Shown here: in pieces, positions 5,720-62,621 of the stretch
How positions within the stretch are numbered: position 1 is the first letter of the stretch
Layout: each line of letters begins with the position of its first letter
Source of the DNA: Dictyophora rubrovolvata
Taxonomy: Eukaryota > Basidiomycota > Agaricomycetes > Phallales > Phallaceae
DNA: 64,000 bases
Assembly (NCBI GenBank): GCA_029959195.1
Contig: CP114119.1
Coordinates: forward strand, 1,364,001 to 1,428,000
Direction of reading: 5' to 3'
Notes under the pieces: model-generated
What the model was told of the DNA's origin: nothing
Databases searched by the model: none
Seen by the model: only the letters and a program-made list of their open reading frames with translations
Program-made: the position numbers and the translations under genes

Positions 5720-5799
5720 GGACCATTGATTTAGCTAGCGTGCGTGCCGGCCCTCTAAAGTCACAAACCTGTGACTCAACTTCAGCGTCTCCATTCGCC

Positions 5800-6838: not shown

Positions 6839-9800
6839 ATGGCCTTGGCACAAGCGCTTGTTGTTCCTGCCGTCATGTCCGAGTCGACTTATTCCTTAGA
6901 CATTGAGAATCTCCATATTTCTTACGACAATCCAACGGACGAGAGTCTCGGGAATGATAGCGTCGATTGGAATAGGTTAAAGGCCTATGCCGCTTCACTG
7001 CCTTATTCCATCGAGTCAAACTCTACCATGCAAAATTTGCTGGATATGTACCTCATGCGAATTGTTCAGGTACATGTCTACGTATTGCTTTATTTTTATT
7101 TATTGCCTATCAATAAATATTACAGTGTATCAAGGCCAAGGATTTTGAACCTGGGTTACTGCAGTGGGACAGTATGATTGACCAGTCCGCTTTGACCTCT
7201 TACTTTCAAATTCGACCTGTCCTGATTGATTTTTCATACAGTTGGTTAATGCTCAAATACCCTGTTCCCTTGAAAAAGCGAGTCCTCCTTGCTAGATTGT
7301 ATTATGAGCTTTGCGTTTTGCCCGGAATGCCTACACACCTCCTATCAACCTGGGTGGATGGTTTATCGGTTTTGCTCCACTCTAAACGCAAAACTTCCAT
7401 CCGTGACTTAAGACTCCCCTGGAAACCAATTTTTGACATACTCAAAAAAGATTTATTTCTTACCAGAAGACAATTCGAAATAAGGCACGGACTTTTCGTT
7501 GTATAAACGCTACGAGAAACCACCAACGATTACTTCTAGTCAAGTGCCCTACTATATGGGATACATTGCTGAGAAATGCCGTCGATTTTTTCATGCAGCT
7601 GCTATTGAAGAAATGCTCGAAACTTTTCTTCCCTTAATGAATGGTACCTCGCTCGATGTGGGTCAGCTTCAAGTCACCACCGGAATTCCCTCGCTTATGA
7701 CCCACGCAGAGTATGCTAGCAACTCAATATTATTTAGTGACATTTCTGCCCCTCTCTCATCCTCAACTTTACCTTCCATTGATGTTCCGAATGTGGGATA
7801 GTATTAATTCCTATATGTGGGACGAAAGGATGTTGTAAGTGATATATTATGGTGCGAAAGTTATAGTTTAGCATGTATGTCTGCTTCATAGGTCTTTCCT
7901 GGGGCAACTTGCCGAGATGCATGTCGATCCAACTCTTAGTGACCCGGCTCTACTTTCTTCCATACCAGACGATGCTCGGAGTGATGGAGAGAGACGCCCG
8001 AAATGGAACAATGACGATTTAAAGGCAAGTGGTGAATGGTGTGGTCTATTCAAAGACGTTGGAATCTTCACCGATGCGCAATGGGCCACTATTATGTCAA
8101 AGTGCTTAACAAGCATGGGTATGTTAAGCAGAGTGATCGACTGTCCATAGTAATCTCAAACGTTACGTAGAAATTTCTCTTGCGGACACAGGATCCTTGG
8201 CCACAGGATCGACTGCAGACAGTCAAGCTGGATTCGAGATCAGTCGTCTTCCAAAAGCCACATGGCGCATTTGTGAGGATTTTTAGTATTTGATATTTTT
8301 TCACTGCTCACCATCGTTATAGATTCGCTGGCAAAAATTTTAGTTTATTCCATGTTCCACGATGGTCAAGCTTCGACGATTGAAAATGGAGTAGATGCTG
8401 AATATTTTCCTTTGAGAGCACCGTCTCCTGGAGGTCGAGGATCTTATCTTGCGGGATGTAAAGCTCTCGACTCATTGTCTCGAATGATTACATCGACTGA
8501 AAGCTTCTTTCACCCGTCCACCTCGGGTCCCTGGACCTCCGATTTGAGTGCCTTCATAAAATATCTCGCCTCGGAATTCAATAAGCGTAAATCCTTGCCA
8601 CAAAGTCGTACTTGATCCAGCTAATTGGCCCTCTCAGGCTGGTATTCCGAACAAAAAATCGATTGTAAAACTCCCGTGGTAAGCTTCTTGTTGTTTGGTT
8701 TGGCTCAGAAGTTTATCATAACCAGAAACGTCGACTTACTCCCCTAATTAAACGCGAATTAGTTCGATGTCTGAGGACTCCGGCTCTCTTAGCGATATTT
8801 TCTCGTGATTCAACGACTGTATCCAATATTCAATCGTGCTTTAAAAGCATGACTATAATGGAACCCGATTTAATTCTGCAACCTATCCTAGAACGCGCTA
8901 TACCCTCGCTGGAGACTTTGGTTGAGGTAATGCTCTCATGTTGGTTACAAGCTGATACTGACGTCCCTAGACTCGCCGTACTACGGCTATCATCAAAGCA
9001 CTGGGTGCTATTACCTTGTCTTTGACAAGTCGCGAGATATATTATCCGGGTTCCAAACACCTCCTTCAGATCCTGGATCTGTTGCTACCTGGTATTGACT
9101 TGGTATGAAATTCCGTTTATTTTCACTCTACAGCCTTCATAACAATTCTTCAGAATGACCCCACCAAAACCGTACGTTACCTAATTTGAAGTTTGAAACT
9201 TGAATATGGTTCATTTTGCCGTCATAGCTATGCACCGCTGCTTTTCTCGTCGAAATGTCTCAATGTATCAAAATTGGAGATCTAACCGAAGATATCAATG
9301 CTCAGGTCAATGGAAATTCACGAGCGGATGATTTTTTCTCAAATGTAATCGATGAAGCGGACGTGAAGATGCCGGCTGAAAACGACGACATTGCTTTAAG
9401 CAAATTCCAGGAGGATGCATTGCTCAAAGACTCGTCAAGAGCATTTCCTGCCTGGACAACAGCATTTATTCGTCGGGTAATCTTACTATTTGAAAATCTA
9501 CCAGGGGATACGGGAACAGAAGTTCGATCCAGTAGTGAAACGGAAAGTGAGTGCTGCAGCTTCCTTGTGCAAAATGTGCCCCGATGAACACGGATGGACT
9601 TCGTAGTTGTCGACGCTGTCATCGAAGCCTGCAGCCAAGTCTGTATTCACCTGTCGGATGCCCTATATGACCTCGTGCTGAATCTCATATATGACTATGC
9701 AAGCACAACTGTACGGCCAAACTGCGTGCATGTTGTTCATCGATTAGTGGAATGCGTCGCAAATGCTAATCCTCCGAAAGCGATTGAGAAATTCCTGCCC

Positions 9801-12800
9801 TTTTGTATGTCAAGGATTGAAAATGAGCTTCAAAACGGTGCCTCATCAATTAGAACAACTTCCACGAATTCCGCTCCTCTACCATCTGACGCTACTTTTC
9901 ACTGGAGTAAGTGAACACGATGTTAGTATGTTCTTCAATGCTAAAAGCTTCATCAAGCTCTGGGTATTGTTCGCGGGCTTGTACGGAGGTGCGTTGCTAA
10001 TTCACTCATTATCGTAGTTGAATCACTGAGAAATTGTCTTTTTAGCGATGGCAAGGCGGTGAGAGCACTTGCAATTCATTCATTCTTATTCAAACTATTA
10101 TCAAAAGCTTTTACCCCACAAGAAAGAATTGTTAGAGTTGCTGCTTTTGCTTCAAAGAAAGACCTTTTCCAAGAGAGGTTTCTCTCGTGCCAGTAAATTT
10201 CTCTTAACAGTGATGGCTTCTTTGACCTCTATTTATCCTAATGAGACAAGATTCGTAAATCCTGATGAGTGGTATGACGAAAGTATGTACTTATTCCTGT
10301 AAGTTTACATCCAAGTAACCTTTAAGCCATCACTAGGTTTCCAGAAGTCGCACTATTTACATTGGGGAAAACTTTACGGTCTCGGTGAAGCAAAAGTGAG
10401 CACCCTTTTATGTATGTATGTGCTATGCAGTATCGATTGTTCATAGATCAACTGGCATACTCCATCGGACGCAGAAATCGGATTCGCATTGGATATCTTT
10501 TCTACTATCATTAAGCCGAGCCTCGATGCTTTAAGAACATTGCTTTCCCAGGATTACGAAGATCCCGGCGTTTGGCAGAACGAGTTCTGCAGGTAGCCAA
10601 TGCTTATTTACCAATAACTAGTGATCCTTTACTGATATCAAATTTCAGACATATGAGTTTTGTTCGGAATGCCTTCGCAGGTATTTCGACACTCTGGAGA
10701 GAACATGTACCTTCCGATGATTTGCTGGCTCAGTCGTTGGAGACCAGTGATATACTGTATGTTCCACGAATTGCAATAATTCTCATCACCCATGAATAAC
10801 TCCAGAAACGAAATTCCGGAATTTATTGCCACCGTAGAGCCATTATCCGCTGGCTTTGGCCTTCAGCCTGGCGATCCAAGACATTCCTACATTAGTGATT
10901 TGCGCCAGGAGTTCGGTGATATACTCTTAACGTCAAGTCGCTTTCTCCGGAACAAAGGACCGGAAAATACCTTTGCGTCATCCCAAGCGTTGCTACGATC
11001 CGTGCGGACCTTCATGCTGGCTTACGGTGATAGTCGGGATACCTACAATACTTTACGAGATCGATATGAGGCTGAGTACAATCTCGCTCTCCAACACGTC
11101 GGTCAGAAGGTTTGGCCCCGGGCATTATATGTACACAAAGCTCAGTATGTATTCCGTACGGTGGTGTCAACTGCGGCAGGCTAACTTATGTCGTGGAGAT
11201 TTTACCATGTGGCTAGGCTACGGTGGAATAGCGTCGAACGGTTTCGTGGGCCTCTTCAGGACAATATTATTGACGAAACTCTGGAGTGGTGCGTACTGAG
11301 AATATCAACCGCCCCCCTTGAGATCTTCATAGTTTTCTAGGTGTTTGTGGCATTACCCAACAAGTATGTACTAGTTTCTCGCGCCAAGTTTTCCCGATCT
11401 TACATTCTTTTTAGTCAGATCAGCGAGTCAAACATTGTTAGAAGACATTTGCAAGGTACAGACGTTCTTCACATCCTCTAACTCAGCTTAATGTCTGTTC
11501 TTTTCTCAGTCTTACGATGGGGTCCGTCGACGGTCACTTCCAAAGCTGTATGATGCGTTGACTCCCGATGCCCCTGATCATCGAGTTAAAGGAGCCCTTT
11601 GGCTACTGAATTCTTCATCCTTTGCTCGATATGCGATGTCAGGTACGTTTGACTCTGTAAAGCCTTGCTATTTTTTTTACCATAGCTCAGAACCAACTTT
11701 AATTCTTCCTTTTATCCGAAAAATATTCTTTTGTCAGGCATACGAAGAGTCGTCTGTACAAAAATGCGTCGCTACGATTATAGAGAATTGTCTTGGACAA
11801 TTTTATGAACCGTCATATATCATCTACGAGTTGCATTCCCCGCCCTTGTCTCGCGCGGTTGATGCCTTAGAAGCTGCTTTACCAAAACATCTGGTCGATG
11901 ATGGTCTTGTGGAGAAGGCCGGACTTCATACTAGGCAACGAATCGAATCGGATAAATGTTGTATAATGGATTTAGTGCGTGTATAGGCAAAAGATTCTTG
12001 ACAAACCGTAAACGTACGCCTTTAGACGATTTCACTTACAAAAATCGCGGAGAGCCCTCAAACACATTGGAAATATTCCATTGTAGCTCTCCGACTGTTG
12101 AGAACTCTCATACGCCGTGATATTCCTATCCATGGACCCCAATTAATATATGTGTGTATTCATTTTTATAATGGGTCATTACTAATGGCCCATAGTTCCT
12201 CAAAAAAGTTACAGACACCAATCCAAGTATGCGGTATTATGCTATTCGAAGTGTAATGAAAGGTAAGTAATTTTATTCCCTGCGTAATACCACAACTAAA
12301 ACTGGGATTCTTCAGCTTCACGATATATTAAACTGCGAACATTCTGCCGGGCTGATCCAAGGGACCTTGCTTTAGGAATCAACCGCAACCCTTTGAAAGT
12401 CTTGGTCGCAATTGATAATCCGTCTGAACGATATACTCAGGAGCTATTATTAGCGTTTCGAGAAACTTTGGACCCGTTGGTTGCATCAAAAACTCCCCTT
12501 TTGAAGGATCGCATGAAGGTTGGTTGGTTAGTATGGGGGAGCGTAGATGAACGCTATCTGGCACCCCCACCAACCCACTCCGACTATTTACCCTGGACGT
12601 CGGATAATGCCACAGCTATTGAGATACTAATGAAGACATGTTGCTCGGAAGATTTTTGGAATTCTATGTCGATCTACTTTGCTGAGGAAACCAATCAGCG
12701 GAGTCTCTCGACAGATAATATCTCGTGCACGAAATCTATATGTGATTGTCATTATCTCTTGCTAGTTGCATTCAAAACTGACGCAGAGATAGTTCAATTA

Positions 12801-14581
12801 CTTCTCGACGCGCCCTTGTTAAGTTTTCAGAAAGTGGTGCTCAAATTTCTGAAAACGGATGATCAAAACAAACAAAGAGCTGCTGCTGAGCTACTTGCAG
12901 GTGTTATAGGGGGTTCGAAACACTGGACTCAGGAGAATCAGGCGCGATTGTGGGTATGGCTTATACCTCTATTTCCTCAAATGTTGGGTAGCAACGTAAA
13001 GCCGGATACACTTACTATCTGGACATCATTTCTAGAGGTATTTATTGTCTTCGAATCTACGACAGCAGTTTGATCGTGTACATGTCCTAGTATATTTCGT
13101 GGCATCGGGATCCTCGTCGCATCGCACCGTTGATCAATTATGTTTTCGAGAAATTTGAGACGACAGATTTCAATGGTGCAAGCTCATCCGAGGCCATCAA
13201 GGTTGCTTCTTTTCATCGTGGACTGGCCGAGGAAATGGGTTGGAAATTTACGGCGTGGATTGATACTACAATCGATCGCTACTGGAAAGAGATAGCTAGT
13301 GAGCATGACGAAGTAAGGGGTTGCATAGCCGAAGCGTTTGCGCTGACTACCAAATTAACCGTAAGCCGAGCCCAATCTCCGTCAAAGGATAAGTTTAGTC
13401 ACCGACTTGATCTTTATTAGTGGAGACCAAAACCCTCAGTCCCCAGTACGTCTTACCTCGTGAAGGAAGCACGGGTCCTACCTGTGGATTTTGATTTATT
13501 GGGTGTAAGGAGTAAATATCATGCGAAGCGCGTTCAGTATCTCGTTAATCAATTCCCAATATGGCGAGAAGCGCGAATTCCAGGCCCTCGAGCGTTTGAG
13601 TCTACCTACGATCGTGTGGGTATCTTGGTGTGTAAATGGCTCTTCCTAGCCATCCATGACGTTCAAGCGGTGTCTGTGTTCGATTACGTCCTTCCATTGA
13701 TGGTAAGTATATTTATACAAAACGTATCGAGATCCGTTTGTTTAAAATTTTCAAAGCCTGAATTGTTTCGATTCGGAGAAGTTAATGATAATGATGAATT
13801 AGTGACCAGAAGCAATCAGCTTTTGGTTCGAATGTGCGGAGTGACCCCGCCCGTCGATCTCATTCGTCCACTATTAGGCCACATTTTCAATGCTATAATG
13901 TTGTCACCATCCTATAGGACTAGGCTGAGCGCCCTTCGACTGCTACAAATATGGTGTTTTCGACAGGGCGGATATTTACTGTCAGAAGACCACACTGTGC
14001 GGGAAATTTTGGATGTAAGAGTGTTTTGAACGTGTATCTCGATTATATTTAATTAACACGAGCCAAACAGGTTGTTTCCACGTCACTTGACGATGAAAAG
14101 ATTGAAGTTCGAGAAACGGCTGGAACGTAAGAGCTTGGTCTCTGTTTCTCCGATACGGGACAGTTGGCTGATAGGTTTTTTGACACTTAGGACGTTGAGT
14201 GGAATTCTAAGATCGTCTCCAAAGGATCCTATTCTGGCGCTCAAGAAACGGTTTGTTGGGACATCTCAAGGAAAGCTTCCAAGTCGAGACTCTCCTGCGT
14301 ACCACGAAGCACTCCGAAAGCTGCATGGGGCTCTTATTGGTATTTGCGCCTTGGTTGATGCCTTCCCGTATACTATTGAGCCATGGATGCCCGAACTGTT
14401 AACTAAAGTGCTAGCTGAGCATGTTTACGATCCTCCGCCACTAGCCGGAACAGTCCGTAAATGTGCGTCAGATTTTAGAAAAAGCCATATAGATACATGG
14501 CAAGAGGACATTACACACTTCACAGAAGAAGAATTATCTACATTATCTACTATGCTTTCTGGAAATACTTACTACGCCTGA
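6839..14581 (+). CDS. BLM10: Proteasome activator Blm10/PA200, copy A
   Basis: Blm10/PA200 is a roughly 200-kDa HEAT-repeat ring that caps the 20S proteasome, opens its gate and helps proteasome import. The start is ATG 6839 (MALAQALVVP; an alternative M is at 6875). Landmarks in order are SLPYSIESN, LYYELCVLPGMPTHLLSTWV, GYIAEKCRRFF with METFLPL-type helices, LAEMHVDPTLSDPALLSS, ALDSLSRMITSTESFFHP, GASSIRTTSTNSAPLPSDAT, and the C-terminal end LSTLSTMLSGNTYYA. The terminal YYA is the HbYX-like docking tail. More than 20 exons are separated by short introns. I checked many junctions and they keep frame, so the gene looks intact. One conserved-position intron (7485-7539) has a GC donor. A second, divergent copy lies at 47003-54487. 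Confidence 0.92.
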
Positions 14582-14885
14582 CTCATTGTCAGTAATCGCG
14601 TATTCATTTATAATAATGGACATGTTTGAATGATAACTTTGGTGGACAGAGTTCAAGTTTCTTCTTCTTCTTTTGTTTATTTATTAAATAAAACTACGAC
14701 CATACTCTCTCTCATTGGTATATTGATTAAGTTTGAACCAAAACAAGGGCGGCGGCAACGAGCCAGAACAAGAAAGGTCAAGAGAAGGAAATGGTGGAGT
14801 ACTTCTTTGGATATGCTACACGTGTCTGATAATGTCAATACTGATTATGAATGAACTTGAGAATAAGTCCTAGGTGGGATACAAG
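14582..14885. other. Convergent intergenic region BLM10-A / HIT gene
   Basis: These 304 bases lie between two convergent stop codons. They include a short (TTC)n run near 14662 and an arginine/lysine-coding open frame (14630-14854) with no similarity that I recognise. I regard it as 3' flanking sequence. Confidence 0.5.
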
Positions 14886-15810: not shown

Positions 15811-15992
15811 GGAGGGACGAGGAGAAGGTGCAGGAGGTGATATTATTATTATTATTACTAAGAAGTATTACATATTCCCCCAGATATATTTATATTATAC
15901 ATGCACACTATAAATAAAGGCAGAAAACGGGCGTAGGACTTATTAAATTAGTACCAGGGTCCTTTATTGATCCGCGAGGAATCAAACCGAGA
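15811..15992. promoter_or_regulatory. Short divergent promoter HIT/TSNAX
   Basis: These 182 bases separate two divergent start codons. They carry an (ATT)n run (about 15841-15856) and TATA-like AT-rich sequence (ATATATTTATATTATA, about 15884-15899). The spacing implies a shared bidirectional promoter; this is inference from layout. Confidence 0.45.
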
Positions 15993-16980: not shown

Positions 16981-17273
16981 AGAATATATACAGAGTGGCG
17001 ATTAACTAGTTGTGTAGATTATTACTTATCAAGGCCTGTCTATATGCAAAATACAATCCACATTTACAGCCACAGATGACGTGCTAAAAAAAAATTGGTG
17101 AACGGTAACATATGAAATATACCAGCAACGACTAAGAGATTGGTAACTGGTAAATTGAAGACTTTTTATATATAAAGGAAAGAAAGCAGTGGCGTATACT
17201 GTACAAGAAAGTATTATAAGTGGTAGTGGCACAAATTGGTGACATAGCGTTACAGACTCCAACGATCATACGT

Positions 17274-18030: not shown

Positions 18031-18152
18031 TCAGACGCTTTTTATTCTTTTGCAATTTTTTCCCCACATTTTTGCATAACATTCCACAGTTCTTCTATGT
18101 CTGTAATATCTATCTATACATAATAAATTACCAAAAGAAAAGAAGAAAACGA

Positions 18153-20676: not shown

Positions 20677-20898
20677 TTTTTGGTTTCTCCTCGTACCTTC
20701 CATTAATTTGTATTGCATTATACTAGCACATCTTTGTCTGACACTTATTCCTTATTGCAATAAAAAAAAGCCCCCAGCTGCTCTATGCCCTATCCTCCAA
20801 ACAGCGCCCATGAGCGATAAAATGTATGATAAGGTTTTTGATTTCGTGTACTACGAAGATATATCCTCATGCGAGTTTCCGCCATGACAGCAGGGTTT

Positions 20899-29473: not shown

Positions 29474-30097
29474 ATTTTTGTGACTCTGCACCTATTGGTG
29501 TAGGTGTAGGACATTCCTCGTCAGACCACCACGATGCGGACCGGCGTAGAAAAGCAATTGGATAGAGATAGACACACATCCACATACACAACATACAACG
29601 TACATATATCTAATAAATATATATATTATTTTACGGCAGGTACCACTGAAAATATTATTAGACGATAACTAGGGATGCTGTCAGGACTAGCTCTTTTAGC
29701 CGGAGACCAGGGAACTCGTGAGCTTGACATAAGCAAGATTGCCGAAGCTTCGACAGTACTTCCTCTGCCGTCACAAGATACCCTTCCATTTACCCATATT
29801 TTTCTCTCCAAAAAAAACAAAATAATATTATTCTTACCGAAATACCATGTCCATGAAAACGACGCTGCGTCATTTCGATTCTACGATCGTTCTTCACTCC
29901 TTGCGCCACAGCAAATGCCGTATCTTCCCTAATCCGGTGCTCTTTGTTTTTGCCTACTTTTGTTTGTTAGGAATTTCTCGCTCTTCTACCTTGCATTGTG
30001 TTCTTTTTTCTTCTTTATAAAAGCCCGCTGTTTCTTTCAAAATGGTTTGCTTAACTGTCCAGACATCTTTGTCGTTGCCAGCGTGGTTCTGCGAAGA
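29474..30097. other. Intergenic region MDJ1 / MFS transporter
   Basis: These 624 bases hold the MDJ1 3' flank and the transporter promoter. An AT-rich block (ATATATCTAATAAATATATA, about 29604-29623) could serve in 3' end formation of MDJ1. A pair of overlapping small open frames near 29630-29930 shows no family features. Confidence 0.45.
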
Positions 30098-32661
30098 ATG
30101 CCTCTCGAAAAGCCTTCACTCAGTTCTTCAACACTGGCAACTGTTAATGATAGAAATGAGACCCGTCCTAATGGTGCCTAATATTCACTTTTCTTGATAT
30201 ACTCTCATGTGTTCAAACGCTTTGGTTTTTTTTACCTACAGGTGCCACCTCTTCACGGTTTATTTCGCTCTTGCTCGCACATATAGGGTGTGTCAGGTTT
30301 GACGTATTATTGAGGTATAATATTAACTCGCGTCCAACAGAGCTGCTCTGGCATTGTTTCTTGCAACCACCGATGCGGTAACGTTGTTCTCACTGAGTAA
30401 GTTGAGGTCACCTGCTAAGCTTCCTGAACAGACTATTGTTTCAACTAGTTTACCCACCATCGCGTCGGAATTAAACGCGTCTCCCACTCAATATTCTTGG
30501 GTTGGTGTAGCTTATATGCTTACCCAGACCGCTTGTCAACCTGTGTATCCCGTGTTTTCCCGTCTGTTCGGAAGGAAGGTACACAGAGAAAAAAAAATCT
30601 TCTCACATGTCTACCTGTTTTGCTTATAATTGCTTGTCAAGGCTGTCTTGTTCTTCAGCATCTCGGTTTTTGTATTGGGATCGACTTTCTGTGGTCTGGC
30701 TCAAGTGAGTGTTTGGACCTTTCCTGAGCATTCAGTCTTATTTGTATTAGAATGCTCTGTGGTTAATTTTGGCTCGTTCATTCCAGGGGATGGGTGCTGG
30801 AGGTATTGTCAATTCAATGTAGGGCCTAGAGAACTCATTGTAAATCCCTACTAATTTTGTGCAATTAGTTGGGTCCTTACCAGTGAAATCGTTACCCCTT
30901 CTGAAAAGCACAAATGGTCTCAAGCTCTCAGTTTAACTTGGAGTGCTTCTGCTATAGCCGGTCCAATCCTGGGCGGAGTTTTTAGTAGGGTTTCCTATGT
31001 CCGCTTTGGGAGGTTTTTTTAAACCATTGATCTGTATAGGCGAGCAGTCTCGGGTTTTATCGTGGCGTTGGGCGTGTATGTGGCTCACTTCTTCTCCTGA
31101 TTTTTTTTGCCTAACACATAAAGTTAGTCTATATGAATATACCTGTTGGTTTTGTGGCATTTGTCCTCCTATACTGCTCGCTTCGATTCTTCAAATTACC
31201 TGAAGTTCCACCTTTTTCTTTGGCGGTGCTAAAAAACACATTTTTACGTGAATTTGACTTCATTGGAGTGTGAGACGTTGCGTTTTATGTCTTTAGCCCA
31301 CTTACAGTGTTCGTAGTCTTCTCCTGGTTATAGGAACAGCTTGTACGGTTCTAGGATTCAGCTTAGCTGGACAGCTCTCCTGTACGTCTGTTGGCTTATA
31401 AATCTCACCCCCAAGTTTACCCCAAACTAATGATTCGTTAGGGAGTGCTCCCGTTGCGGTGGTCTTACTTTCCACCGGTTTAATACTTCTGGTTGTCGGG
31501 GTATTATACGAATTCTATACCTCGAGAATTGCCATTCTTCCAAAGGTTCTATTTAGTTCTCGTACGGAAGGTGACGTTTATTCATTTTGTTTTATGGAAT
31601 TTTTTTTGAATCTTTTGGACTAGTTATCATCTTAATAATTACATTTTTCCATAACGTAGCATTCAACGCTGGAACATTTTATTTAGCGATATTTTTCCAA
31701 GTAAGTTTCGTGATGATCCAATTCAACAAATAACATATTCAATTATGGTTAGGCTGTTTTAGGAATCGGACCTTTATTATGTGGCGTTCTTATGCTACCT
31801 TACTCTTTAGGAAGCGCCCTTGCCTCCATACCTGTTGCGTTATTCAATGATTACTACTCCAAGAAAACTAAAGACACAAGATGTTATAAAATCGTTGTGA
31901 TTAGTGGTTTGGGCCTGTCGACTTTAGGCTTCGGTAAGTATTTTATTTCAAAACCACTCTCCGATCGATGATGAAGCAGATGTTTAGGACTGTTGACAAT
32001 GCTCAGCAACAAAAGCCCACTAATTCTGAAAGAAATATATCCGTTAATTGCCGGAATTGGGATCGGAATGTTATTTCATGCTCCTTTCGCTGCAATTACC
32101 AATGGGATGACAAATGAAGATCGTGCTTGCACAACGAGCGCTTTCTTCTTAGTCCGGTTTATAGGCGCAACATCTGGTCTTGTAAAGGATCTTATTTATA
32201 TCATGGTTGGCATCTAGAACTAACGTTTTGTACTAGTCAGTGGCAGGTGCCATATTTGACAGCAGGCTTTTTCAAACCCTCCCCAAAAATTCCCCTGTGG
32301 GGGAAGCAAACTTTTCGGACGATCTGCGGAAATTGGTTCATTTAGAGCCGATAACGCTGAGATTAGAAGTTCTTCACGATGTGTCTTCCGCTTTATCGGT
32401 AAGTTACATAATTCGTCTGGCAGCCGGGTCTTCCATAAATTTTGCATTTTCAGTGTATTTGGATCACCTGCGTATGTTGCCTGGGCTTGGCGTTTCTGGT
32501 TAGTCCGTCAGACTCACGCATTCATATATATAAATATTTATGCCTTTTCGTTCCAGTTTTCGTTCGCTATTCGGATCCGTCCCATTGATACGGAAACTAG
32601 CAAAGATGAGGTGACCAGTCGCTCAATAGATGCTTCGACGGAAGTTCGAAGTACAGTTTAA
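30098..32661 (+). CDS. MFS transporter (multidrug/H+ antiporter type)
   Basis: This is a major facilitator transporter of the plasma-membrane drug:H+ antiporter kind. The start is ATG 30098 (MPLEKPSLSSSTLATVNDRN). About 13 exons are interrupted by short introns. Membrane-segment landmarks are QTIVSTSLPTIASELNASPT followed by YSWVGVAYMLTQTACQPVY, RLFGRKAVLFFSISVFVLGS (motif-A-like loop), GMGAGGIVNSI, GPILGGVFS, WRWAFYMNIPVGFVAFVLLY, TVLGFSLAGQLSW, FNAGTFYLAIFFQAVLGIGP, LIAGIGIGMLFHAPFAAITN and ACTTSAFFLVRFIGATSGL. The arrangement suits the DHA2 (14-segment) group. I tested most junctions and they hold frame. The substrate is unknown. The first two introns are the least certain. Confidence 0.85.
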
Positions 32662-40159: not shown

Positions 40160-40191
<32 letters not shown>

Positions 40192-41624: not shown

Positions 41625-42202
41625 TTCCGCGTAGACGCTGTCATGTCATGCATTGCATATGTTCCAAGAGCAAAAAAATAAATATAAATAGGAAAAAGAA
41701 CGCCGTTCGATTGTGCCAGGAAGGAATAAAATAAAATAAAAATAAAGAAAAAACTTTTTTTTTCTTCTTCCGCTTGCTCCTGCTCTTCTTTCACCGTCAC
41801 CCTCCCCGAGCTCATCGTCGTCGTCGTCGTCGCCGTCGCCCATCCCGCGAGTATAAGTAATTTATTATTTATACTTAATCTTATTTTATTCCATCCATTG
41901 CCATCCATTACCACTGAACTTTTCTGATCAAATCTGATTTATTTCTGACAAGTACTTTATTTCATAATTCACCGTCACAGAACTGAATTGAATTCTCTTT
42001 CACTTGGTGGGCGTACGTATATACACGCTTAAATTTGTGTTTGGTTACATACTCCCCCTTCCATACACGTTTACACGTTGTTTTCGTCTCCCGAGTCCAT
42101 TTTGCCATCCCTTCTTCCTTTCTTCTCTTTTCTTTTCTTTTCTTTTCTTTTTACCCCTCCCTTCCTCTCATATCTCTTCCTCTTTTCTCGTCTGATTTCA
42201 AT
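41625..42202. promoter_or_regulatory. Promoter and pyrimidine-rich leader of the CCCH gene
   Basis: These 578 bases lie between the kinase stop and the CCCH start. A (TCG)n run lies at about 41815-41840. A strongly pyrimidine-rich tract of TTTTC repeats (42121-42154) and CT-rich sequence run up to the ATG. CT-rich leaders are common upstream of transcription starts in filamentous fungi. No gene is called. Confidence 0.5.
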
Positions 42203-45200
42203 ATGCTTGCCAACCGTAAAGCTAAATTAGATTGGGCGACCGAGTGTCAGACGCCACTCGACGAAACGAGGATATCCATGTTCAAAATGAATAATTCCAC
42301 CAATTCAAACATCAACGCCAATACTTCCAGTAACCCTAATACTTCTTCTTTCCCTTCCTCCTCCTCCTCTGCCTCCGCCTCTACCTCCTCCCTTGCCACC
42401 ACAACTGCGTCCAATAATACCGCCGTCGTCCCTTCCTCCAGTTCTACTCCAGGTGATCCTGCGACTGCGACTGCGACCTTGAACAAGGACTCATCTGAGA
42501 AAGACCAGCACCCTCTCCTTTTTCATCCTCAGCCTCCTCATCTACACCAACAGCGTCAACAACAGCAGCAGCAACCTCGAGGTCATCCTCTTAATATGTA
42601 TTATCCTAACTCGGCCGATCCCGCCATCGCCTCTATGGGCATCGGCGTAGGGTCCGTTGGAATGGGCGCTCTCCACCCGAACAACCCAAACATCAGCTCC
42701 AACACCAACCCAAATATGCAGTCCTCTCAATCTTCCGCTCAACAACACCAGCAACATCAACACCATCAGCAGCAGCAGCAATCACACCAACAGCAATCAC
42801 AACAGCAACAACAACAATCCTTTATTCAAAACAGCCCTCTTCCACTGGGTGCCCCACTACCCTACCCTCACCATTTTTTCAATAACATGAACATGGGCTT
42901 AAGTCCAGATGTCTACGCTGCTACTGTCGCAATGCAACAACAATTGGGCCTAGTCGGCGTCGGCGGCGCTGGCGTCAACCTGCTTTCCACCAGCCATACC
43001 CATGGTCACGGTCACGGTCACGGTCCAATCCACAACATGGCTGGTACAGCCGCGGCGTCCCCCGTCGGTCAACACCAGCCCAACTCAGGTTTTCCCAATC
43101 TAGCTTCCATGACTCTTGGAATGCCGGGAATAAGCATTAGCGGCCTCCCGAATATCGCTGGTTTAACCGGAGGTCTCAATGGTATGGGCAGTCTCAACGT
43201 CAACGCCTTGGGTGTCGGCGCAAATCCCAATCTTGTTCCGGGTCTTGCAGCCCTCAGCTTATCCCCCTCCCCTCATCCTTCTGCCCATCCTCTGAACCTC
43301 AATCATTTGAACGTTAATCATACTGGTCATCACCACTTACATCATCCCCAACATGGCATAACCCCCCCTCCTCCCATTTCACCTTCCTCAGTCGGCGGCC
43401 CTTCCTCTGCTACCTCAACCGGCCCCATGGGCTCCGGTATACCTGGTGGCCCCAGCGCTAATAACCGCAAGCTTGGTCTCTATAAAACTGAACTCTGTCG
43501 CAGCTGGGAAGAAAAGGGCTCGTGTCGCTACGGACCCAAATGTCAATTCGCACATGGTGAAGATGAACTGAGGAGGGTTTCTAGACATCCCAAGGTGCGT
43601 GTGTTTGTACCCCGTACATTAGTGTGTGTGTGTGTGCTGAGTGTTATATCAGTATAAAACCGAAATTTGTAGAGTATGTCTATGGACGCGATGTCTTGCT
43701 CTTTTCTTTTCTGATTCTTTTCTTTCTAGACTTTCTGGGTCTCAGGTTCATGCCCCTACGGCAAACGCTGCTGTTTCATACACACCGAGCTACCATCAAG
43801 CCCAGCAGATGGCGCCCCACCTCCAACCGCTTCGTCCAATTCGACCCCAGCTAATCCCACACCGGTTACTAATAGTTCTGGACCGACTTCTCCTGTTAAG
43901 AATAAATCTCTGGGTGAACTTAGCGATACCCATCTCAATGCAGTCTCTGAGCAGCAGCAGCAGCAGCCATTTTCCCTATTGAGAATTGGTACTGTGAACA
44001 ACAGTGTAGCAACCTCTGCGTCAGCACCGGTTACTGCTAGTTCTACCCCTGCGTCAGCATCACCCGCGCCGGGCCAAAATACCAACGCTCACATACCATC
44101 CTCTCAATTGGCGACTCCGACCACGGAGGGAAGTGTTACTCCTACTTCCGCATATCCCAAGAACAATGATTTCTCATCTGACTCTGAAGTTTCTAATTCT
44201 TTGGCGTCGTCAGCAGCCGCTACTACACCCAGTGGAAGATCATCTCGTCCTACCTTTTTGCGAGTTGACACTCATATAAACACTTCTGTTTCCATGAAAC
44301 AGAACAAGAGCGCTTTCCCCATTATGAATCCGAATACGCTCACAACGTTCTCATTGGGTGGTATGAGTATGGGTGGGGGATCTGGTATTAGTGGTGCAGG
44401 TAGTGCAGGTTCTTCTAATAACAGTGGAGGTTCTAGGCTCTCCTTTGGACGCCTTTCTACCGGTGCTGTAAATGCTATAGGCACGAATGGAGCTGGTGTT
44501 GGTGGAGGCGCAAGCGGTAATAATGCAGGTAATGGAATGGGCCAGAGTCAAATTGGATATGGCGGTGTTCTCCTTAGTCCTGCACCAGTTACTGCTGGTC
44601 CAGATCTGGGTGGTACAGCTAGAAGGTTTGAAAATTTCGACGTAAGTTCAGCTCCTCATAATTATTTACCCCGACATTCGCTAATGTCATTTTCATTATT
44701 ATTTTCTTGCCATATAGCGATTCCCCAAAGTTTCGACACCTGTTACCGCACAACCTACACCCGCTAATGCAACCCCACCACGCGCGCCGTCCACTTCTGG
44801 GTCAAGTAAAGACATTTCGCCGCCCACGACTTCCGCTGGGGCAACGTCTTCCGGTTCTGGGTCCGCCAACGTCAGACACTCGTTCACCGGGGAAAATATG
44901 GGAATTCAAGGTCATTTCGCGAATTTAACGCTTAATACCAACGTGAATGGCTCCGCGTCGTCGGCTTCCATTCCTTATCACGGAGGACAGATGAAAAATA
45001 CACCACCGCCTTTGACAGCCGGTCCTGTCCCCTCGGCGACTACTGCTGTGGCTCAGGCTATTTTGCACGGTCGATCAGGTTCTGATGGTTCAGGTGTTGG
45101 TAGCGGGGTGAACCTCAGCGGTCTAGGCGGATTGGGCGGTGTGGGACTCGCTGGTTTGAATATGAATATGATCAACGGTACACCGGCTCCTGGTGCTGCA

Positions 45201-45383
45201 GGCACGGGTGCGACTAGCAGCAATACCGGATTAAATGGAAATAGCGGTAGCGCCGCGTGGGGAAATACGAACAAGTTCCTGTCAAGGGGTGCGCTGTCCG
45301 CTCTTCCTGGTGGGCCGAGTGTCGTCCCCCCTTGGGCTACCAGCAATTCCGGATCGAATGGTGGGAATGGGGGGTCGAAATAG
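42203..45383 (+). CDS. Tandem CCCH zinc-finger mRNA-binding protein (TTP/Zfs1 type)
   Basis: Proteins of this family bind AU-rich elements in 3' UTRs and promote mRNA decay. Four exons (42203-43594, 43653-43673, 43730-44641, 44718-45383) join in frame to 996 residues. The two fingers are [24 protein letters not shown] and [24 protein letters not shown], both C-x8-C-x5-C-x3-H, each preceded by the family lead-in YKTE(L/I)CR. The 21-base exon 2 codes exactly for the lead-in YKTEICR of finger 2. The long N-terminus is Gln/His/Ser-rich and the C-terminus Gly/Ser/Asn-rich, with runs such as QQQQQ. The protein is much longer than fission yeast Zfs1. ATG 42203 ([16 protein letters not shown]) is the first in frame after the leader. 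Confidence 0.93.
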
Positions 45384-47002: not shown

Positions 47003-50000
47003 TTACGCGTAATATGAGCTCCCTGACAGCATCGTCGACAAAGCCTGCAGTTGATCCTCGTTGAATTGGTGTTGATCAATATGCCACATGTCCTGATGCG
47101 TTTTCTTGAAATCTGAAGCACATCTATAAATAAAGGCAGTGGGCAGCAAAGACGAAGAATTAGGAATCATTGAGAGTGCCATGATTAATGAGATAGTGCC
47201 CAGAGATTATTGAAAGAGTTGCAAAATCACGATACATCCATTGGTGAGTACAGCCAGGCGCACATGAAGATGAAGCGGTTGATTTAGGGGAATTTCAAAA
47301 GAAGAAAGGATGTATACTAAGCACTTTTATCACTGCGAAGCCGCTTGAAGCACACTCACCTGCGAATGGTCTGTGCAATCGGTGGCGGATCAGTCGCATG
47401 AGGTGCCAGAACTGTACGTAATTATTTCAGTCACCGTGATATATGAGTTCATTTGGCAATCTGTTCACACTTACCCTCGCAAAGAGAAGGCATCCACTCT
47501 GGGACAGTATAGGGGTGTGCGTCCATCAATGCGACGATTCCTAAGATACCTCCATGCAACTTCCTCATGCACTCCGCATAGCTAGAAGATTGTCTCTTCG
47601 GAAGTTTGGCGTTCTGGAGAACTGCCCGTGTGAATATATCCCTCAAGGGAAGGATACGCTGCCGCTGCGAGCTTCGTAAGACGGAACTCAGTGTCTTAGC
47701 GGCCATTTCCCGGACTTCGATATTTTCGTCCTCGAGACATTGAAGAAGAACATCCATAAGCTTTGACATTGATTCGGATGTAAAAAAGGTCAGGTTGCGA
47801 TACCAAAAAACTGCCAGGGTTGGCAAAGCGTTTAACCGAACACGCCAACTTGTAGATGAGACTATTGCATCCATGAACATATTCGCTACCTTAGAGACGT
47901 ATTCTTGGGGTGGCATCACTGCTGATAAAACATAAAGCACTGCCGTGGAGTACAGTTGTAAATCAGAACTCTACAAACATGGATTCAAATTTCAGACCAA
48001 GACTTTTTTTTTTGAGATGAGTTATGGTACGCACATCATTTAATTCAGCCATTTCAAGAAAGGCAGGGAGAAGAGGTGCAGAATATGGAAAGATGGCTGG
48101 TGCGAATGAACCGTGAGCCCCCGTCCAAATAAATTGCAAGAGAGTTAATCCTGCTCTATCATACTAGCAAATATTGTTAAAAAAAAGGGAATCCAAAATG
48201 ATTGTGTACAGACCTCTGATTGAGCCTGGTTGGGAGGAGGAAGACGGAGCAGTTTCCATTGAGGGAATAGCTGGACATAGGATTGAATCCTGTCACGATG
48301 TTCTGCTTCACGGATGAACAGAGGATCCTGTGATTTTGTCACAGCATGTAAAAGGTCCAATGTTGACCGATAACCAGGATGCCATTGTAGCCTCACGATA
48401 GTATCGAGGTTGGTCGCGATATGTGTCCTTATCTACAGGAACTCAGCTGAAGAAAAAGTAACGTAACGAGAAACAATGACCTCGGCATAGCCTGTATTGG
48501 CGTTGTCAAAAAATATGTTGACATATCGATCAGCGTAAGGTTCGAAACGAGCCCCTAAGTTCTCAGCCATTATGCCGATCAGGTTGAGAGATTTACTCAC
48601 TACGAAAAGATGTCATTCATTCGTAGAACAGGGATAAACAAATAAACATACTGGAAAAAGGAGACTCCCCAGAAAAGTCTAACGGCAAAGAATTAATGAA
48701 GTCTATCAAAGTTTGGTTTCGACGTGGATCCCAGGAGTCTAGCTGCAGGGAAAACATTGATTCCCACATTTGCATGGTATCCGGTGTAATTGAGGCTAAA
48801 ATGCGAGGAAGACGTGGTGCAACCCACGTCCAAAGTTTTTCTGATGCCACCCGGGACCAATGTTTGGAGCCTAGATGTTGAATAGTATCTCTAGCTGGAA
48901 AAAAATCAAACGAAAGGGTAGCAAACCTCTCATCGTTCCCTGCAGTAACTCAGCCGCTGCCCGTTGGTTGAACCTATCCCCGTCCTGCCATAATGTGTCG
49001 GTGATACTCAATATCAAATCCACATATCTGTCCTCGTACATTTTGCCTTAACAGCACATGAGTTTTAGAGTGAAATTTCGTATTGTGAGAGTACTAACAC
49101 AAAGACTTGATCAATACCAAATGATCTGAGCGGACATCGGTTGTTCCACTTGTAGTTGCACCAGACTCTTGGGACCACAGAGTAGCTAAACGCATAAACC
49201 AATTTTGGTCGTCCAGACTTTCTTGGATAACCTCTAATGCAGGCAAGGTCGCCTCACTCCAATTAAAGGGAGAACCGGATTCGGGAGGGGGAATGTATAC
49301 TTTGACATTTTTACTCCACACAAGAAAGCCCGTGAGTAGCTTATCTACATAAAACCTACAGGAATTAGACAGAGCACGGGGTTTTGAGGCAAATGAAATG
49401 TTTACCTATGATTGTTATTCGACAAGGGCCGTGCCAGCTGTTGCATGAAAGCATCTGGGTCGTCAATATCTACAGACGAAGACAGCGGATTGTGCCAGTT
49501 GTCCAACCAAAGCTCTTCATCATTTTTGCTCCATGTTTGGATCTTAATCATACGTAAAATTTTTACAATTGCTCTGCAGTGGATGTCAGTACTTTCAACT
49601 TCTTTTGAATGTTTATAAATTGCTTGCCGAATGGATGTGGCACGCAGTGATGGATGGTCACTGAGAACATTGTAGATGAAGAACTGAGCTATAGGCTTAG
49701 ACGGGGCTGCATCCCTTCTAAGCATATGAGATAGAAGGCGTGAGGCGGCATGAACGTATCTCCACTAACAGAGACGATTATTTGCGTACAACAAAGCAAT
49801 AACAATTACGCACGTGAGTTGATGGATCAGTTGCGATATTCAAGATCCCACTCAGCGTCGTGGAATAAACCTGCTCCTTTCGCGTAAGTCGTGGACTCAC
49901 CATCGACATAGCCTTATCGAGTACAACGAGTTTGTAATCAGGTAGTTCAAAGTCTTCTTGGATCACTCTCAAGGCAGCATCTACTTTGGGAATACCCATC

Positions 50001-53000
50001 GTGTATACGTGCGATGAAAGTGCTTCAGGGCTGAAATTATTCAATACTTCCATTAACGCTGTCGTGACCAATTTTTGGATACTAGGCTAAACTTCTCGTG
50101 AGATGATCTGAACTGGTACAATGACGAGACAAAAACCTTTTCTTGATGTTGACACCTCAGTAAAGATAGGATATACTCTTCAGCATACTGTGGATCTCCA
50201 ACTGTATAGCTAGTTGTACCCTTGGTAGACAAAACATAAAGAGCTCCCTTCATTCTGTCCGGATCAGTATCTTTAGTGAGCGCGCGCAGAAGATGGGGCA
50301 AGCAAAAACGCGTCGAGCGAACATAATGCTGCATCACAGTCAGTAAAATGGCTTGACTGTGTCTAATCAAACCATTAAAATAGAGTGATAGAAAATTATA
50401 GTACGGACACACCTTCGGATACGGGTATATGGTGATAGAGAAAACTCTACAAGATCGAGGATAAGAGCATCATCCAAGGCACTTCTTTTTCGAAACATCG
50501 CGTTGAAGTAAACTCGAGTGGAATGGTATACCTGAGCTCGTTTTAATAAAACAAGTCGAGAGAATTGTTTCGACTTAGACCATAGACGCTGCAAGCTGCA
50601 TAAGGAAATGTCTAAGTAAGTGGACGACGAAGCAAGTATACACGCACTCTCGGACCACAGTATAACTTTTGTTGAGAGCACTGTAAGCGTTTGCAGTAAT
50701 GCCATACTCAAGGAGATAAACGTCTATGGCACGTGAGACAGCTAAGATAGCATCAATGTGATCGTCTGCATCGGATTCTCTCAGAGCTTCCGCCGCACGA
50801 TGCAGCAACTTTCCAAAGCGTAGCTTATGTTCTGAGAACTTCTGGTATAAAGGATCGTCCGGCGAGGTGAGAGCAAAGCCGGCGGCAACTTTAAGAGAGG
50901 TCGGTAGGAACTCCATTAATTCGAAATCTTCATTCACGCAAGGAGCGGTGACTTCCTTCTCCTCCTCTAAAAAGACAGTAGACAGGCCGCTCCAAGCACA
51001 GCGAACCGCATGAATAAACCTTCGGGAAAAGTTCGAATAATGATGCGGACAGACGTTTCTCGAAACTCACCGACAGAAATCATTTTTCCATATACTATCC
51101 CACCTTGACCTTGCTTCATCCAATAGAAGTTCAACCTTCTTTAATAAAGGTTCGACTATTACATCCAATATCTCCAATGCAAATCCTATTTCTTCTCTGG
51201 AAGGAACTGCAGATATAATGGAATGAAATCATGGCCAGGCTCACAGCATTGGGAAGTCTTACCATGCCAATCGACCTTCACGTCCCTGGCTTCATATAGT
51301 TTTCCCCAATAGTCAAGATTTTCGCGATCAAACGCTTAAAAGTGAATTAGATGATCGATCGAATAAGGGTGTTGAATGTAAAATACTTGGATCTTCCCAT
51401 TCGTCGGTGTTAACAAAACGGGAGTTAATGGGATAAACTCCGGTCAGCGTGCTTAATATACGGGTTATGAGTCTCCCAGTGCTTGTAAAACCCCTTTCGC
51501 TGAGAGTTTTGTCTATAAGGAGAGAAAGTAATTCTAGGATGTCATTCTTGCGCCGAAGCAGCTAATCAAGAATGAGGAAACGCAATGAGAACCTGGAAAA
51601 AGACCCACCGCGAGTCCTCCATAACCCATGCATCCGCGAAGAATTGAGATACCTTTGCAAAGTAGGTCAATTCTATCCTTTGGGATGCATTGTGAGGGGG
51701 ACTTACACCAATGCAAAGTAGTGTCTGATGGCACAGCATCATGCGTTGATGTCGTTCTAACGCTTGACGCTCCATGCCGCAATTCGGTAACAATCTGCTG
51801 AGAACAGTATGGCAAAAACCTTTCGAGCGTTTTCTCGGGTTTCACTCGAGCCAGACACCCCACAAGTCCTCCGAACGCACGAACAGCGTTAGCTTTTGCA
51901 TTGGAAGTAGCGTATTCGAATGTCAGATTCAAAACAAAATCAAATAAGGGATCTGATAGGTGTAAACATGTCACGTCCAAAGCACTTTTGAGAGATTTGA
52001 TAACACTCTCTTCTACTTTACCCCCCTAAGAGAATATCAGTGAAGTACCAATGTATCCATAGAAGACACTTACAGTCGTATTGCGTTTACCTCCTTCTTC
52101 GGGCAAATTCTCATATAGGGCAAAGACGCGTCTAAAAAAACTAGCAATCCAATCTTATGAAGCCATATATCAAACGTGAGTTATACAAAACACATCAAGA
52201 GAAACATACGAACCTGTAAAACTAGCAGTACTTTCACGGACCAAAGCGCGTTCTTCGTTCTTGTTCAAGACTTGCGTTGAACCATGATCAATCCCGTCTG
52301 GTAGTTTATTTCCAATACCATTAATAGCAGCATCGGTCATTCCATCATCCGTGGCAATAGAGGAGTCCCGATCTATGGTGGTTAAATCCACGATCTTGAT
52401 GTTCTGGAGCACCGCCACAAGGAACATTGTCGTGCAAACAGTTTTTATAGGATCATTCTTTAATAATGGAATTATGATCAATCTTTAGAGATCAAGGTAC
52501 ACTTACTAAATCTATCCCAGGCAAAGACAATTCCAATAAAGGGAGTATATGTTTTTGACCACCTAGCCACAGCTTATCTGAAACAAGAGGTAAAGCGACA
52601 CCAGATAAAGTACTGAGAACTGCTGTAGTTCTGTGTGTTTCATTGATGACTTCCAATCCATTATAAGCACGCTCAAATATCTCGGGCATAATCAAGGAAG
52701 GTTCAAGGATGGCCATGACACGTAATGCTCCTTGTGCAAAAGACATAGAAACAGGATCCTTGGAAAACATAGCTAACAGAGCAGGCGTGCGTAACATTAG
52801 AACGAAATTTCGTTTGATCGACGGTGTAAGCCGGCGAATCTGAGAATACTGGTTACATCAAACCCTAGCAAACATAAGTTGGAGATACACACGTGTGGAG
52901 TCAGGCAAGAAGGCTGTTCTTCTTCTTTCCATCTTTTGGAAAATTCCAAGCAAACCTTATGCAGAAAAGTCGTCAAACAGACCGTCCATATACCAGCATT

Positions 53001-54487
53001 TGAAGGATGAAAGTATGTTTCTGTACTTGTCATGAAGCGTTGAAGGGAATCGAGTGCACGAGAGCCAGCCAGATAATGCCTCTCAGTGGTTTGCATCGAC
53101 AAAGACTCTTTTGTCATGCCGCTCGAGAGGGAATCGACACTCATTGATCCTACAAATATCTGTGCCAAGTGACCTGTGTGATACGAAATAAATCTTAAAT
53201 CTTTAAGAATAGTGAAGCATGAAGAACGCACTATATCTGCTTGTGTTCTTCTTAATTTGAAGGGACTGTGTATCTGCTTGACCATCCGCGTGAGTACCGG
53301 TAGTGGAAGTGCCCTTACCGATTCCAACGGGAATACCTTTTTTTTGCATGAACTGACATTATGCGATACATCATGTCTTTACACTCACTGAATGAACCCA
53401 AACACTTTCCCATGAGAATAGTCCACTGATCCTCAGAGAAAATACCAACGTCCAGCCAAGGAGTGCTATCATGTTTGCCTCTGTGCCCGGTGTGTTCAAC
53501 AGCTAAATTACCCATAATTTCAAGCATGCGTTCATCCGCAAGCTTCAAGTACAATCAATTCAGGACTTCAAAAGCCATATTCAATATAAGAACTTACATG
53601 AGAATTCAGCGCTTCCCAGAGTTTGAAGAGAAAGGGAATATATTTCTCACAGCCATCAAGAGGTAAAAAGGACGCTAGGACATGGACAATGATAAGATGG
53701 GTCTACACAAATCTAATTAGTCACGTGAAAAGAATGAGAATGAGAACAGACATCTCTAGTCAGTAACGGGAGAAAGGTGGCTAGCATCATCCCTATCTCA
53801 TCAGATGGGTAATAGAACTTGCATTGCTCTGCAGCATATAATAAGATATTGACCATATTGCGCCTACATCATATTGGACACAATTAGTACCAAAGATAAC
53901 GATGTTGTGCTCAAACAAACATACGAATCATCTAATCCACGTTTCTTGGGGAAAAGCTCCTTTTGCAAAACACACCAAAGTGAACGCCACTCAAGCTGGA
54001 GGTCCGAAGGCTGCAGCTTTCTCTTATAGCCGGGGCCTTTATTGGCCAATAGTTTTACTAATGTGTCAATCCAAGTTCTAACGCAGCGAGGATCCATCCC
54101 CGGAATGAGGGTAAGTTGATAATACAATTTGACTAGGTTTGCTCGAGTTTCTGTAGAAATTGGGTACCGTAACGTAAGCCAACTAGACAATTGAGTGAAT
54201 GGAAGTTTAGAAAACAAGACATTAGGCAAAAAATCTTACCAAAGGACCATGTTGTTGTAATTGTTAACGGCATTCCATTCTCTCGACTTCAAGCTGGTAA
54301 TGAACATTCCCACAATGTGTTGAAGCTTGGCATGCATCTCAGATATTGTTTCGGTCTGGTACGGTAAAGAAGCCAGATATGTATCCAAGGTCTTTTTGTC
54401 ATATTCAACAGGGTTTTCGTTATACGGAGGGGAAACCGACTCTGACATTTCTGAGTCAATATTGATGTCGAGTTCGTCGGGGTCCAT
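47003..54487 (-). CDS. BLM10: Proteasome activator Blm10/PA200, copy B
   Basis: This is the second large HEAT-repeat proteasome cap gene, on the opposite strand. The start is ATG 54487 (MDPDELDINIDSEMSESVSP). Landmarks parallel copy A: YLASLPYQTETISEMHAKL, LVKLYYQLTLIPGMDPRCVR, QLEWRSLWCVLQKELFPKKR, GSRALDSLQRFMTSTETYFH, VFDFVLNLTFEYATSNAK-like helices, GASSVRTTSTHDAVPSDTTL, DTDPDRMKGALYVLSTKGT, YAECMRKLHGGILGIVALMD and the terminal LSTMLSGSSYYA. The YYA tail is the HbYX-like docking motif. More than 20 exons are visible and the junctions checked hold frame. Relative to copy A it is clearly diverged (by eye roughly half of the residues match in the best blocks), so the duplication is not recent. 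It is divergent from AIM18. Confidence 0.92.

Positions 54488-59744: not shown

Positions 59745-62621
<2,877 letters not shown>

What the first reader, a model, noticed from the sequence alone, without database searches (positions are those of the whole stretch)
6839..54487. Two diverged, apparently intact BLM10/PA200 genes in one 64-kb window, in inverted orientation
Copy A (6839-14581, plus) and copy B (54487-47003, minus) show the same order of conserved blocks, and both end in LSTMLSG..YYA, the HbYX-like tail needed to dock on the 20S alpha ring. As far as I know most fungi carry one BLM10 gene. The copies are clearly diverged along their length, so this is an old duplication with both copies kept, which hints at specialised proteasome caps (for example stage- or compartment-specific).
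Basis: partly seen in the sequence, partly recalled or inferred. Interest (0 to 1): 0.85.

Follow-up and report, generated by a model that had tools for sequence, protein, structure and literature searches.

The report
Two ancient mushroom proteasome-cap genes
This stretch of a stinkhorn-like fungus's genome holds two old, apparently intact versions of a gene for a cap that opens the cell's protein shredder; many related mushrooms carry the same pair, usually on the same stretch of chromosome, and the two caps differ in a loop thought to poke into the shredder's gate.

Summary
Copy A (6839-14581 +, 33 introns, 1991 aa) and copy B (54487-47003 -, 28 introns, 1936 aa) are complete BLM10/PA200 genes, 37% identical, sharing 11 introns in position and phase; both end in YYA. 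No third PSME4_C copy was found in the 28.2-Mb genome. The nearest named relative is Clathrus columnatus, so the host is stinkhorn-like.

The pair is not peculiar to this fungus. A and B each have orthologues across Agaricomycetes, forming two clades (ultrafast bootstrap 100 each), with Tremellomycetes, Wallemia, Ustilaginomycotina and Pucciniomycotina outside in the best tree. The duplication most likely fell on the Agaricomycetes stem. A and B share a contig in 46 of 53 species tabulated (46 of 55 with two omitted pairs). I found no report of it, and a 2015 survey describes PA200 as a single gene in each genome examined.

Specialisation is supported but unproven: 62 fixed A/B differences, and a contrast in the loop that inserts into 20S in human PA200. 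Two basic residues are kept in B (116 and 119 of 120) and other basidiomycetes (27 and 29 of 29) but absent in A (0 of 120).

The parts
6839..14581 (+). PA200/BLM10 copy A (A-clade): 33 introns, 1991 aa, ends YYA
   Evidence: spliced model; Pfam; closest Clathrus columnatus Clacol_003672, 69% id over 100%, 76% over 1868 aligned residues with the revised model
47003..54487 (-). PA200/BLM10 copy B (B-clade): 28 introns, 1936 aa, ends YYA
   Evidence: spliced model; Pfam; closest Clathrus columnatus Clacol_003687, 75% id over 99%, 79% over 1840 aligned residues
14570..14578 (+). C-terminal YYA (HbYX-type tail) of A
47006..47014 (-). C-terminal YYA (HbYX-type tail) of B
9501..9641 (+). A residues 679-705: equivalent of the human PA200 loop Thr562-Lys574 that inserts into 20S; acidic, net charge -5 in the columns of B 632-659 (interrupted by intron 9547-9606)
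51969..52103 (-). B residues 631-659: same loop; 5 basic residues, net charge 0 in B 632-659 (interrupted by intron 52073-52026)
7485..7539 (+). only GC-AG intron of the pair; same position and phase as B intron 53924-53864
7185..7241 (+). A intron with weak donor GTCCGC; position and phase shared with B intron 54239-54183
5689..6704 (+). upstream neighbour of A (its longest exon has no Pfam match; extent approximate); the same gene is annotated as an N-terminal fusion to A in 7 A-type proteins of other Agaricomycetes
41987..45383 (+). CCCH zinc-finger gene next to the 3' end of B (extent approximate, from open frames); the same gene is annotated as a C-terminal fusion to B in Tetrapyrgos and Fibroporia

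Best explanation
The window holds the two members of an Agaricomycetes-wide PA200/BLM10 paralogue pair (A and B), made by one duplication most likely on the stem of Agaricomycetes and kept, mostly linked on one contig, since then. Both are most likely working proteasome activators: a HEAT-repeat dome on the 20S alpha ring, docked by the C-terminal YYA, working without ATP or ubiquitin (family knowledge, not shown here). They are probably not equivalent. B keeps basic residues, shared with other basidiomycetes, in the loop that in human PA200 inserts into the 20S; A has lost them and carries a strongly acidic loop. The inferred step is that A- and B-capped 20S differ in gating or in the substrates or partners they admit. 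Shown: intactness of the models, orthology, clade monophyly, linkage by contig, fixed differences, loop change. Inferred: docking, gating difference, division of labour.
For: Complete reading frames, three family domains and YYA in both. The best 120 hits of B all fall in the B clade and the best 120 of A all in the A clade. ML tree of 30 sequences: A clade 100, B clade 100, A+B 100 ultrafast bootstrap, with Tremellomycetes, Wallemia, Ustilaginomycotina, Pucciniomycotina and Geosiphon outside (FastTree of 90 sequences agrees). 11 introns shared by A and B. A and B on contigs of identical length in 46 of 53 species; gene tags 8-15 apart in five assemblies with a shared contig and ordered tags. 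Conserved neighbours on both sides. Constraint: 308 near-invariant columns (99%) in A, 220 in B; the window copies keep 292 of 308 and 220 of 220. 62 columns fixed differently between clades, of which window A has the A state at 51 and window B the B state at 48; polarised about evenly: 19 A-derived, 20 B-derived, 23 unresolved. Loop: position B643 is K/R in 119 of 120 B, 29 of 29 outgroup basidiomycetes, 0 of 120 A; position B636 in 116 of 120, 27 of 29, 0 of 120 (17 of these gapped); mean net charge A -4.0, outgroups -1.6, B -0.1. Human Thr562-Lys574 and YYA insert into 20S (PMC7077846, passages read).
Against: No expression, biochemical or dN/dS data. Loop equivalence to human rests on a phmmer alignment in a poorly conserved stretch. 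The 29 outgroups are not independent: by tree position 19 are Ustilaginomycotina, 6 Pucciniomycotina, 3 Tremellomycetes and 1 Wallemia. 50 of 120 A and 32 of 120 B database proteins do not end in YYA; 38 of the 50 and 15 of the 32 run ...GSSYC or ...GTSYC, which looks like a missed last intron splitting the penultimate Tyr codon, but real loss of the tail in some species is not excluded. Window A is faster than typical: it keeps 489 of 538 A-clade 95% columns, against a clade median of 98.7% (the relative Clathrus keeps 458 of 538, partly for annotation gaps). An A+Tremellomycetes grouping is not rejected (AU p = 0.092). In the midpoint-rooted tree the A side has support of only 0.617.
Confidence: 0.78

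Rival explanations
1. The two copies are functionally redundant caps retained for dosage; sequence differences, loop included, are near-neutral drift within a tolerant HEAT scaffold.
For: Same domains, same YYA tail, similar root-to-tip lengths (A 0.81-1.20, B 0.92-1.24); derived fixed changes split evenly (19 against 20).
Against: Redundant duplicates are rarely both kept this long (general knowledge); 62 columns fixed differently at 90% or more; the loop state is uniform within each clade (0 of 120 against 116 and 119 of 120).
Confidence: 0.18
2. The duplication is older than Agaricomycetes (before the split from Tremellomycetes), with one copy lost in the other lineages.
For: The AU test does not reject A+Tremellomycetes (p = 0.092), and the more conservative SH test does not reject B+Tremellomycetes either (p = 0.064); the outgroup search saw only proteins of about 1990 aa or more, so second copies there could have been missed.
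Against: A+B monophyly has 100 bootstrap; by the AU test B+Tremellomycetes (p = 0.010), A+all other basidiomycetes (0.019) and B+all other basidiomycetes (0.015) are rejected (20 sequences).
Confidence: 0.12
3. Copy A is decaying in this fungus (recent or early pseudogene).
For: One GC-AG intron and one intron with a weak donor (7485-7539, 7185-7241); A is among the faster A-clade members.
Against: Open over 1991 codons with 33 introns, 292 of 308 near-invariant A columns kept, YYA kept; the two weak introns match B introns in position and phase.
Confidence: 0.03
4. Assembly artefact or divergent alleles placed in one contig.
For: None found.
Against: 37% identity, and the same two-copy arrangement on one contig in 46 of 53 other species.
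Confidence: 0.01

Closest known systems
Blm10 (Saccharomyces cerevisiae) / PA200, PSME4 (human)
   Same: Same family domains and C-terminal YYA; PDB sequence match of B to human PA200 E 4.4e-102 and to yeast BLM10 E 4.7e-48.
   Different: The survey PMC4453063 reports one gene per genome; here two. The human acetyl-lysine residues Asn1716-Phe1717 correspond to Ser-Gln in B and Ser-Pro in A, read by eye from the alignment and the A sequence.
BLM10 of other Basidiomycota (Ustilago, Sporobolomyces, Wallemia, Cryptococcus, Kwoniella)
   Same: Closest outgroups; share the K/R-containing loop with B (29 of 29 at B643).
   Different: They branch outside A+B; their copy number was not established here.
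PA28/PSME duplication in chordates (PSME1/2/3)
   Same: A proteasome activator duplicated and split into isoforms with different roles (PMC4453063, passages read).
   Different: Unrelated protein family; in that case one paralogue stayed slow and others ran fast, while A and B here evolved at similar rates.

Membership tests
BLM10/PA200 proteasome activator | PF16507 mid HEAT region | tested here: met
   A 558.7 bits, B 577.3 bits, cut-off 25.2
BLM10/PA200 proteasome activator | PF11919 C-terminal domain | tested here: met
   A 95 bits, B 109.3 bits, cut-off 22.5
BLM10/PA200 proteasome activator | C-terminal YYA (HbYX-type) tail | tested here: met
   Both window models end YYA
BLM10/PA200 proteasome activator | Binds 20S alpha ring and opens the gate | not testable with these tools
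   Needs biochemistry
BLM10/PA200 proteasome activator | Human-type acetyl-lysine residues Asn1716-Phe1717 (not family-defining: yeast Blm10 uses other residues) | tested here: not met
   B has Ser-Gln, A has Ser-Pro at the aligned place (alignment, by eye); yeast Blm10 uses Tyr1663 and Asn1664 instead (PMC7077846), so this does not bear on membership
BLM10/PA200 proteasome activator | Inositol-phosphate-binding openings | not tested
   The text read gives no residue list; the other structure paper (PMC6863390) is not held
A/B paralogue pair of Agaricomycetes | Each window copy nests in its own supported clade of Agaricomycetes orthologues | tested here: met
A/B paralogue pair of Agaricomycetes | Both genes under purifying selection (dN/dS below 1) | not testable with these tools
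   No DNA of relatives; protein-level constraint shown instead

The most novel reading that the evidence does not exclude
Mushroom-forming fungi run two chemically distinct PA200 proteasomes: a B-cap with the basic gate loop shared with other basidiomycetes and an A-cap whose loop became acidic, giving different gating or substrate selection (for example histones or other basic proteins at a particular life stage). Because the genes have mostly stayed linked, the pair may be co-regulated.
Probability: 0.3. Interest if true: 0.75.

Novelty: new variant of a known kind. Interest (0 to 1): 0.5.

Why it matters
PA200 has been described as a single gene in each genome surveyed (PMC4453063, passages read; which basidiomycetes that survey covered I did not see). 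A class-wide, apparently unreported duplication with a fixed change at the 20S-inserting loop offers a natural experiment: two long-separated versions of one cap in the same cell, in genetically tractable mushrooms such as Coprinopsis cinerea, which has both (P0114 B; P0217 A). It makes the role of the loop and of PA200 gating testable by deletion and loop exchange.

Tried and rejected
Ab initio splicing with weak intron penalties over-predicted introns and a gene finder for the whole window ran away in non-coding DNA; I used a stricter self-trained model and hand curation against B, Clathrus and Ramaria. One A model had a one-base intron error and was discarded. Earlier models (A 2010 aa, B 1930 aa) were used; later changes were small (A lost a 57-base unspliced intron; B gained 6 residues). 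Trees and topology tests were not rerun with the final models.

Considered and rejected: mating-type locus (30 exon stretches scanned show no mating-type domain; most matches are housekeeping genes); alternative 20S with duplicated alpha subunits (one search found 6 alpha N-terminal motifs, 4 over cut-off, seven expected from general knowledge; exon-wise search, so inconclusive, but no sign of extra copies); human-type acetyl-lysine motif as the A/B difference (absent in both window copies).

Literature: six searches aimed at a duplication or at PA200/BLM10 in these fungi (open-licence library only) gave no paper on a PA200/BLM10 duplication in basidiomycetes; one search looked for structures. 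PMC4453063: passages only. PMC7077846: passages and one section in full. PMC12954528: passages. All others were seen only as search listings.

Full report
What is there. Two regions of the window match each other exon by exon in inverted orientation. A self-trained splice model plus hand curation gives A at 6839-14581 (+) with 33 introns and 1991 residues and B at 54487-47003 (-) with 28 introns and 1936 residues, each from ATG to stop. Introns are short (median 52 nt); 60 of 61 are GT-AG. Both proteins carry PF16507, PF11919 and PF23096 (earlier models) and end in YYA. They are 37% identical and share 11 introns in position and phase (chance mean 0.14), so they descend from one intron-bearing gene.

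Whose genome. The window is C3:1364001-1428000 of a 28.2-Mb assembly in 11 contigs. The best protein hits of both copies are from Clathrus columnatus (B 75%, A 69%; 79% and 76% on revised alignments), followed by Hysterangium and Ramaria for B and Ramaria for A. The source is therefore a stinkhorn-like fungus; the species was not established. Six-frame searches of the genome show no third PSME4_C gene, one PA28 place and one Cut8 place.

Orthology. Searching with B and with A returned 239 and 210 proteins; the best 120 of each were listed, and for A only the 7989 candidates sharing most words were scored. A tree puts all 120 listed B hits with B and all 120 listed A hits with A. The hits cover Agaricales, Polyporales, Russulales, Boletales, Hymenochaetales, Gloeophyllales, Auriculariales and Phallomycetidae (groups recalled from the genus names). 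For outgroups I used a long joined query, which returned 68 proteins including Ustilaginomycotina, Pucciniomycotina, Wallemia, Tremellomycetes, Geosiphon, two yeasts and Cavenderia. In the resulting trees A and B are each monophyletic and together exclude every other lineage sampled (FastTree 1.0, 0.994 and 1.0; IQ-TREE ultrafast bootstrap 100, 100 and 100). Rhizoctonia (Cantharellales) falls at the base of B, and an unnamed protein, P0250, at the base of A. The AU test rejects three of four older-duplication trees; A+Tremellomycetes remains possible (p 0.092), and the SH test also leaves B+Tremellomycetes open (p 0.064). The duplication therefore sits most likely on the Agaricomycetes stem.

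Linkage. In 46 of 53 species with both copies in my lists, A and B are on contigs of the same length, down to 160 kb. Of the seven exceptions six have at least one contig under 200 kb; Serpula lacrymans is the clear exception (3.2 and 2.9 Mb). Two omitted pairs on different contigs make it 46 of 55. In five assemblies with a shared contig and ordered gene tags these lie 8 to 15 apart: Clathrus 3672/3687, Tetrapyrgos 62/77, Collybiopsis confluens 6201/6213, Tricholomella 5140/5155, Trametes sanguinea 826/834. Of the 288 proteins fetched, seven A-type proteins carry the gene just upstream of A as an N-terminal extension (P0121, P0135, P0203, P0205, P0239, P0259, P0280), and two B-type proteins carry the CCCH gene beside B as a C-terminal extension (P0051, P0248). 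In the window both neighbours are separate genes; the upstream one has its own stop at 6704, and the CCCH gene lies on the opposite strand from B, unlike in the two fused annotations. I could not read the other genomes' DNA, so gene order between A and B elsewhere is not shown.

Constraint and divergence. With columns of at most 25% gaps, A has 308 columns at least 99% identical and B 220; the window copies keep 292 and 220. At 95%, window A keeps 488 of 538 and B 414 of 435, so A is a somewhat fast member of its clade (clade median 98.7%). Sixty-two columns are fixed (90% or more) for different residues in the two clades; the window copies show their clade's state at 51 (A) and 48 (B) of these. 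Against four outgroup lineages 19 are changed in A, 20 in B and 23 are unresolved. Root-to-tip distances are similar. Neither copy is simply the ancestral one.

The loop. In human PA200 the YYA tail and the loop Thr562-Lys574 insert into the 20S, and residues 562-575 are seen only in the complex (PMC7077846, passages). Through this loop corresponds to B 631-659 and A 679-705. B and the other basidiomycetes share a motif of the form LPEEG..K....GGK.E, whereas the A consensus reads LPEEG....GGATEVQ. At B643 a basic residue is present in 119 of 120 B, 29 of 29 outgroup basidiomycetes and 0 of 120 A; at B636 in 116 of 120, 27 of 29 and 0 of 120 (17 A sequences are gapped there). B gained further lysines (B653: 120 of 120 B, 0 of 29 outgroups). 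Mean net charge is -4.0 in A, -1.6 in outgroups and -0.1 in B; three A proteins have two or three basic residues elsewhere in the loop, at least one of them (P0121) in what looks like a retained intron. This is the best lead to a mechanism: the same docking tail with a different gate probe. Geosiphon, the two yeasts and the human loop do not share the motif, so polarity is shown only within basidiomycetes, and 19 of the 29 outgroups belong to one subphylum.

The tail. 70 of 120 A and 88 of 120 B database proteins end in YYA. Of the rest, 38 of 50 A and 15 of 32 B run ...GSSYC or ...GTSYC, mostly followed by unrelated residues, the pattern expected if a last intron splits the penultimate Tyr codon and was missed by annotation. 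This is an inference.

Novelty. [quoted passage not shown] which basidiomycetes it covered I did not see. Six literature searches found no report of the pair, in an open-licence library that lacks most subscription papers. The family is known; the class-wide pair with a divergent gate loop is a new variant.

Noticed in passing
2958-4130 (-): Cut8/STS1 nuclear proteasome tether (PF08559, E 2.6e-14), the only place found in the genome, about 3 kb from PA200-A, with an XPA-like DNA repair gene between. A functional link is a post hoc guess; conservation of this neighbourhood elsewhere was not testable.
   Followed up: partly
A- and B-clade database proteins, e.g. P0161, P0207, P0016: Many annotated PA200 proteins of mushrooms lack YYA, apparently because a last intron splitting the penultimate Tyr codon is missed; public models of these tails look unreliable.
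   Followed up: partly
P0244, P0245, P0252, P0253: In Rhizoctonia/Ceratobasidium annotations B carries thiamine-pyrophosphate-enzyme domains and the name pyruvate decarboxylase in two of them, probably merged gene models, hinting that the neighbourhood of B differs in Cantharellales.
   Followed up: no
P0250: Unnamed protein at the base of the A clade with the acidic loop (GGE); it may be an early-branching Agaricomycete or a Dacrymycete and would help date the duplication.
   Followed up: no
7485-7539: A GC-AG intron with an otherwise poor donor at a position where B has a canonical GT-AG intron.
   Followed up: partly
15623-46500: Genes between A and B by exon-level Pfam matches: Translin, BATS domain (biotin synthase-like), protein kinase (CK2 alpha-like by eye), SET domain, MFS transporter (below its cut-off), choline kinase, CCCH zinc finger; plus several stretches without a match.
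   Followed up: partly
54747-63800: Beyond B: chalcone isomerase-like, Nramp transporter, Med6, SGT1 and an ATP synthase F subunit-like gene.
   Followed up: no
30001-32000 and 42001-44000: Marked local base skews (AT skew -0.238; GC skew -0.291 with 50% GC).
   Followed up: no
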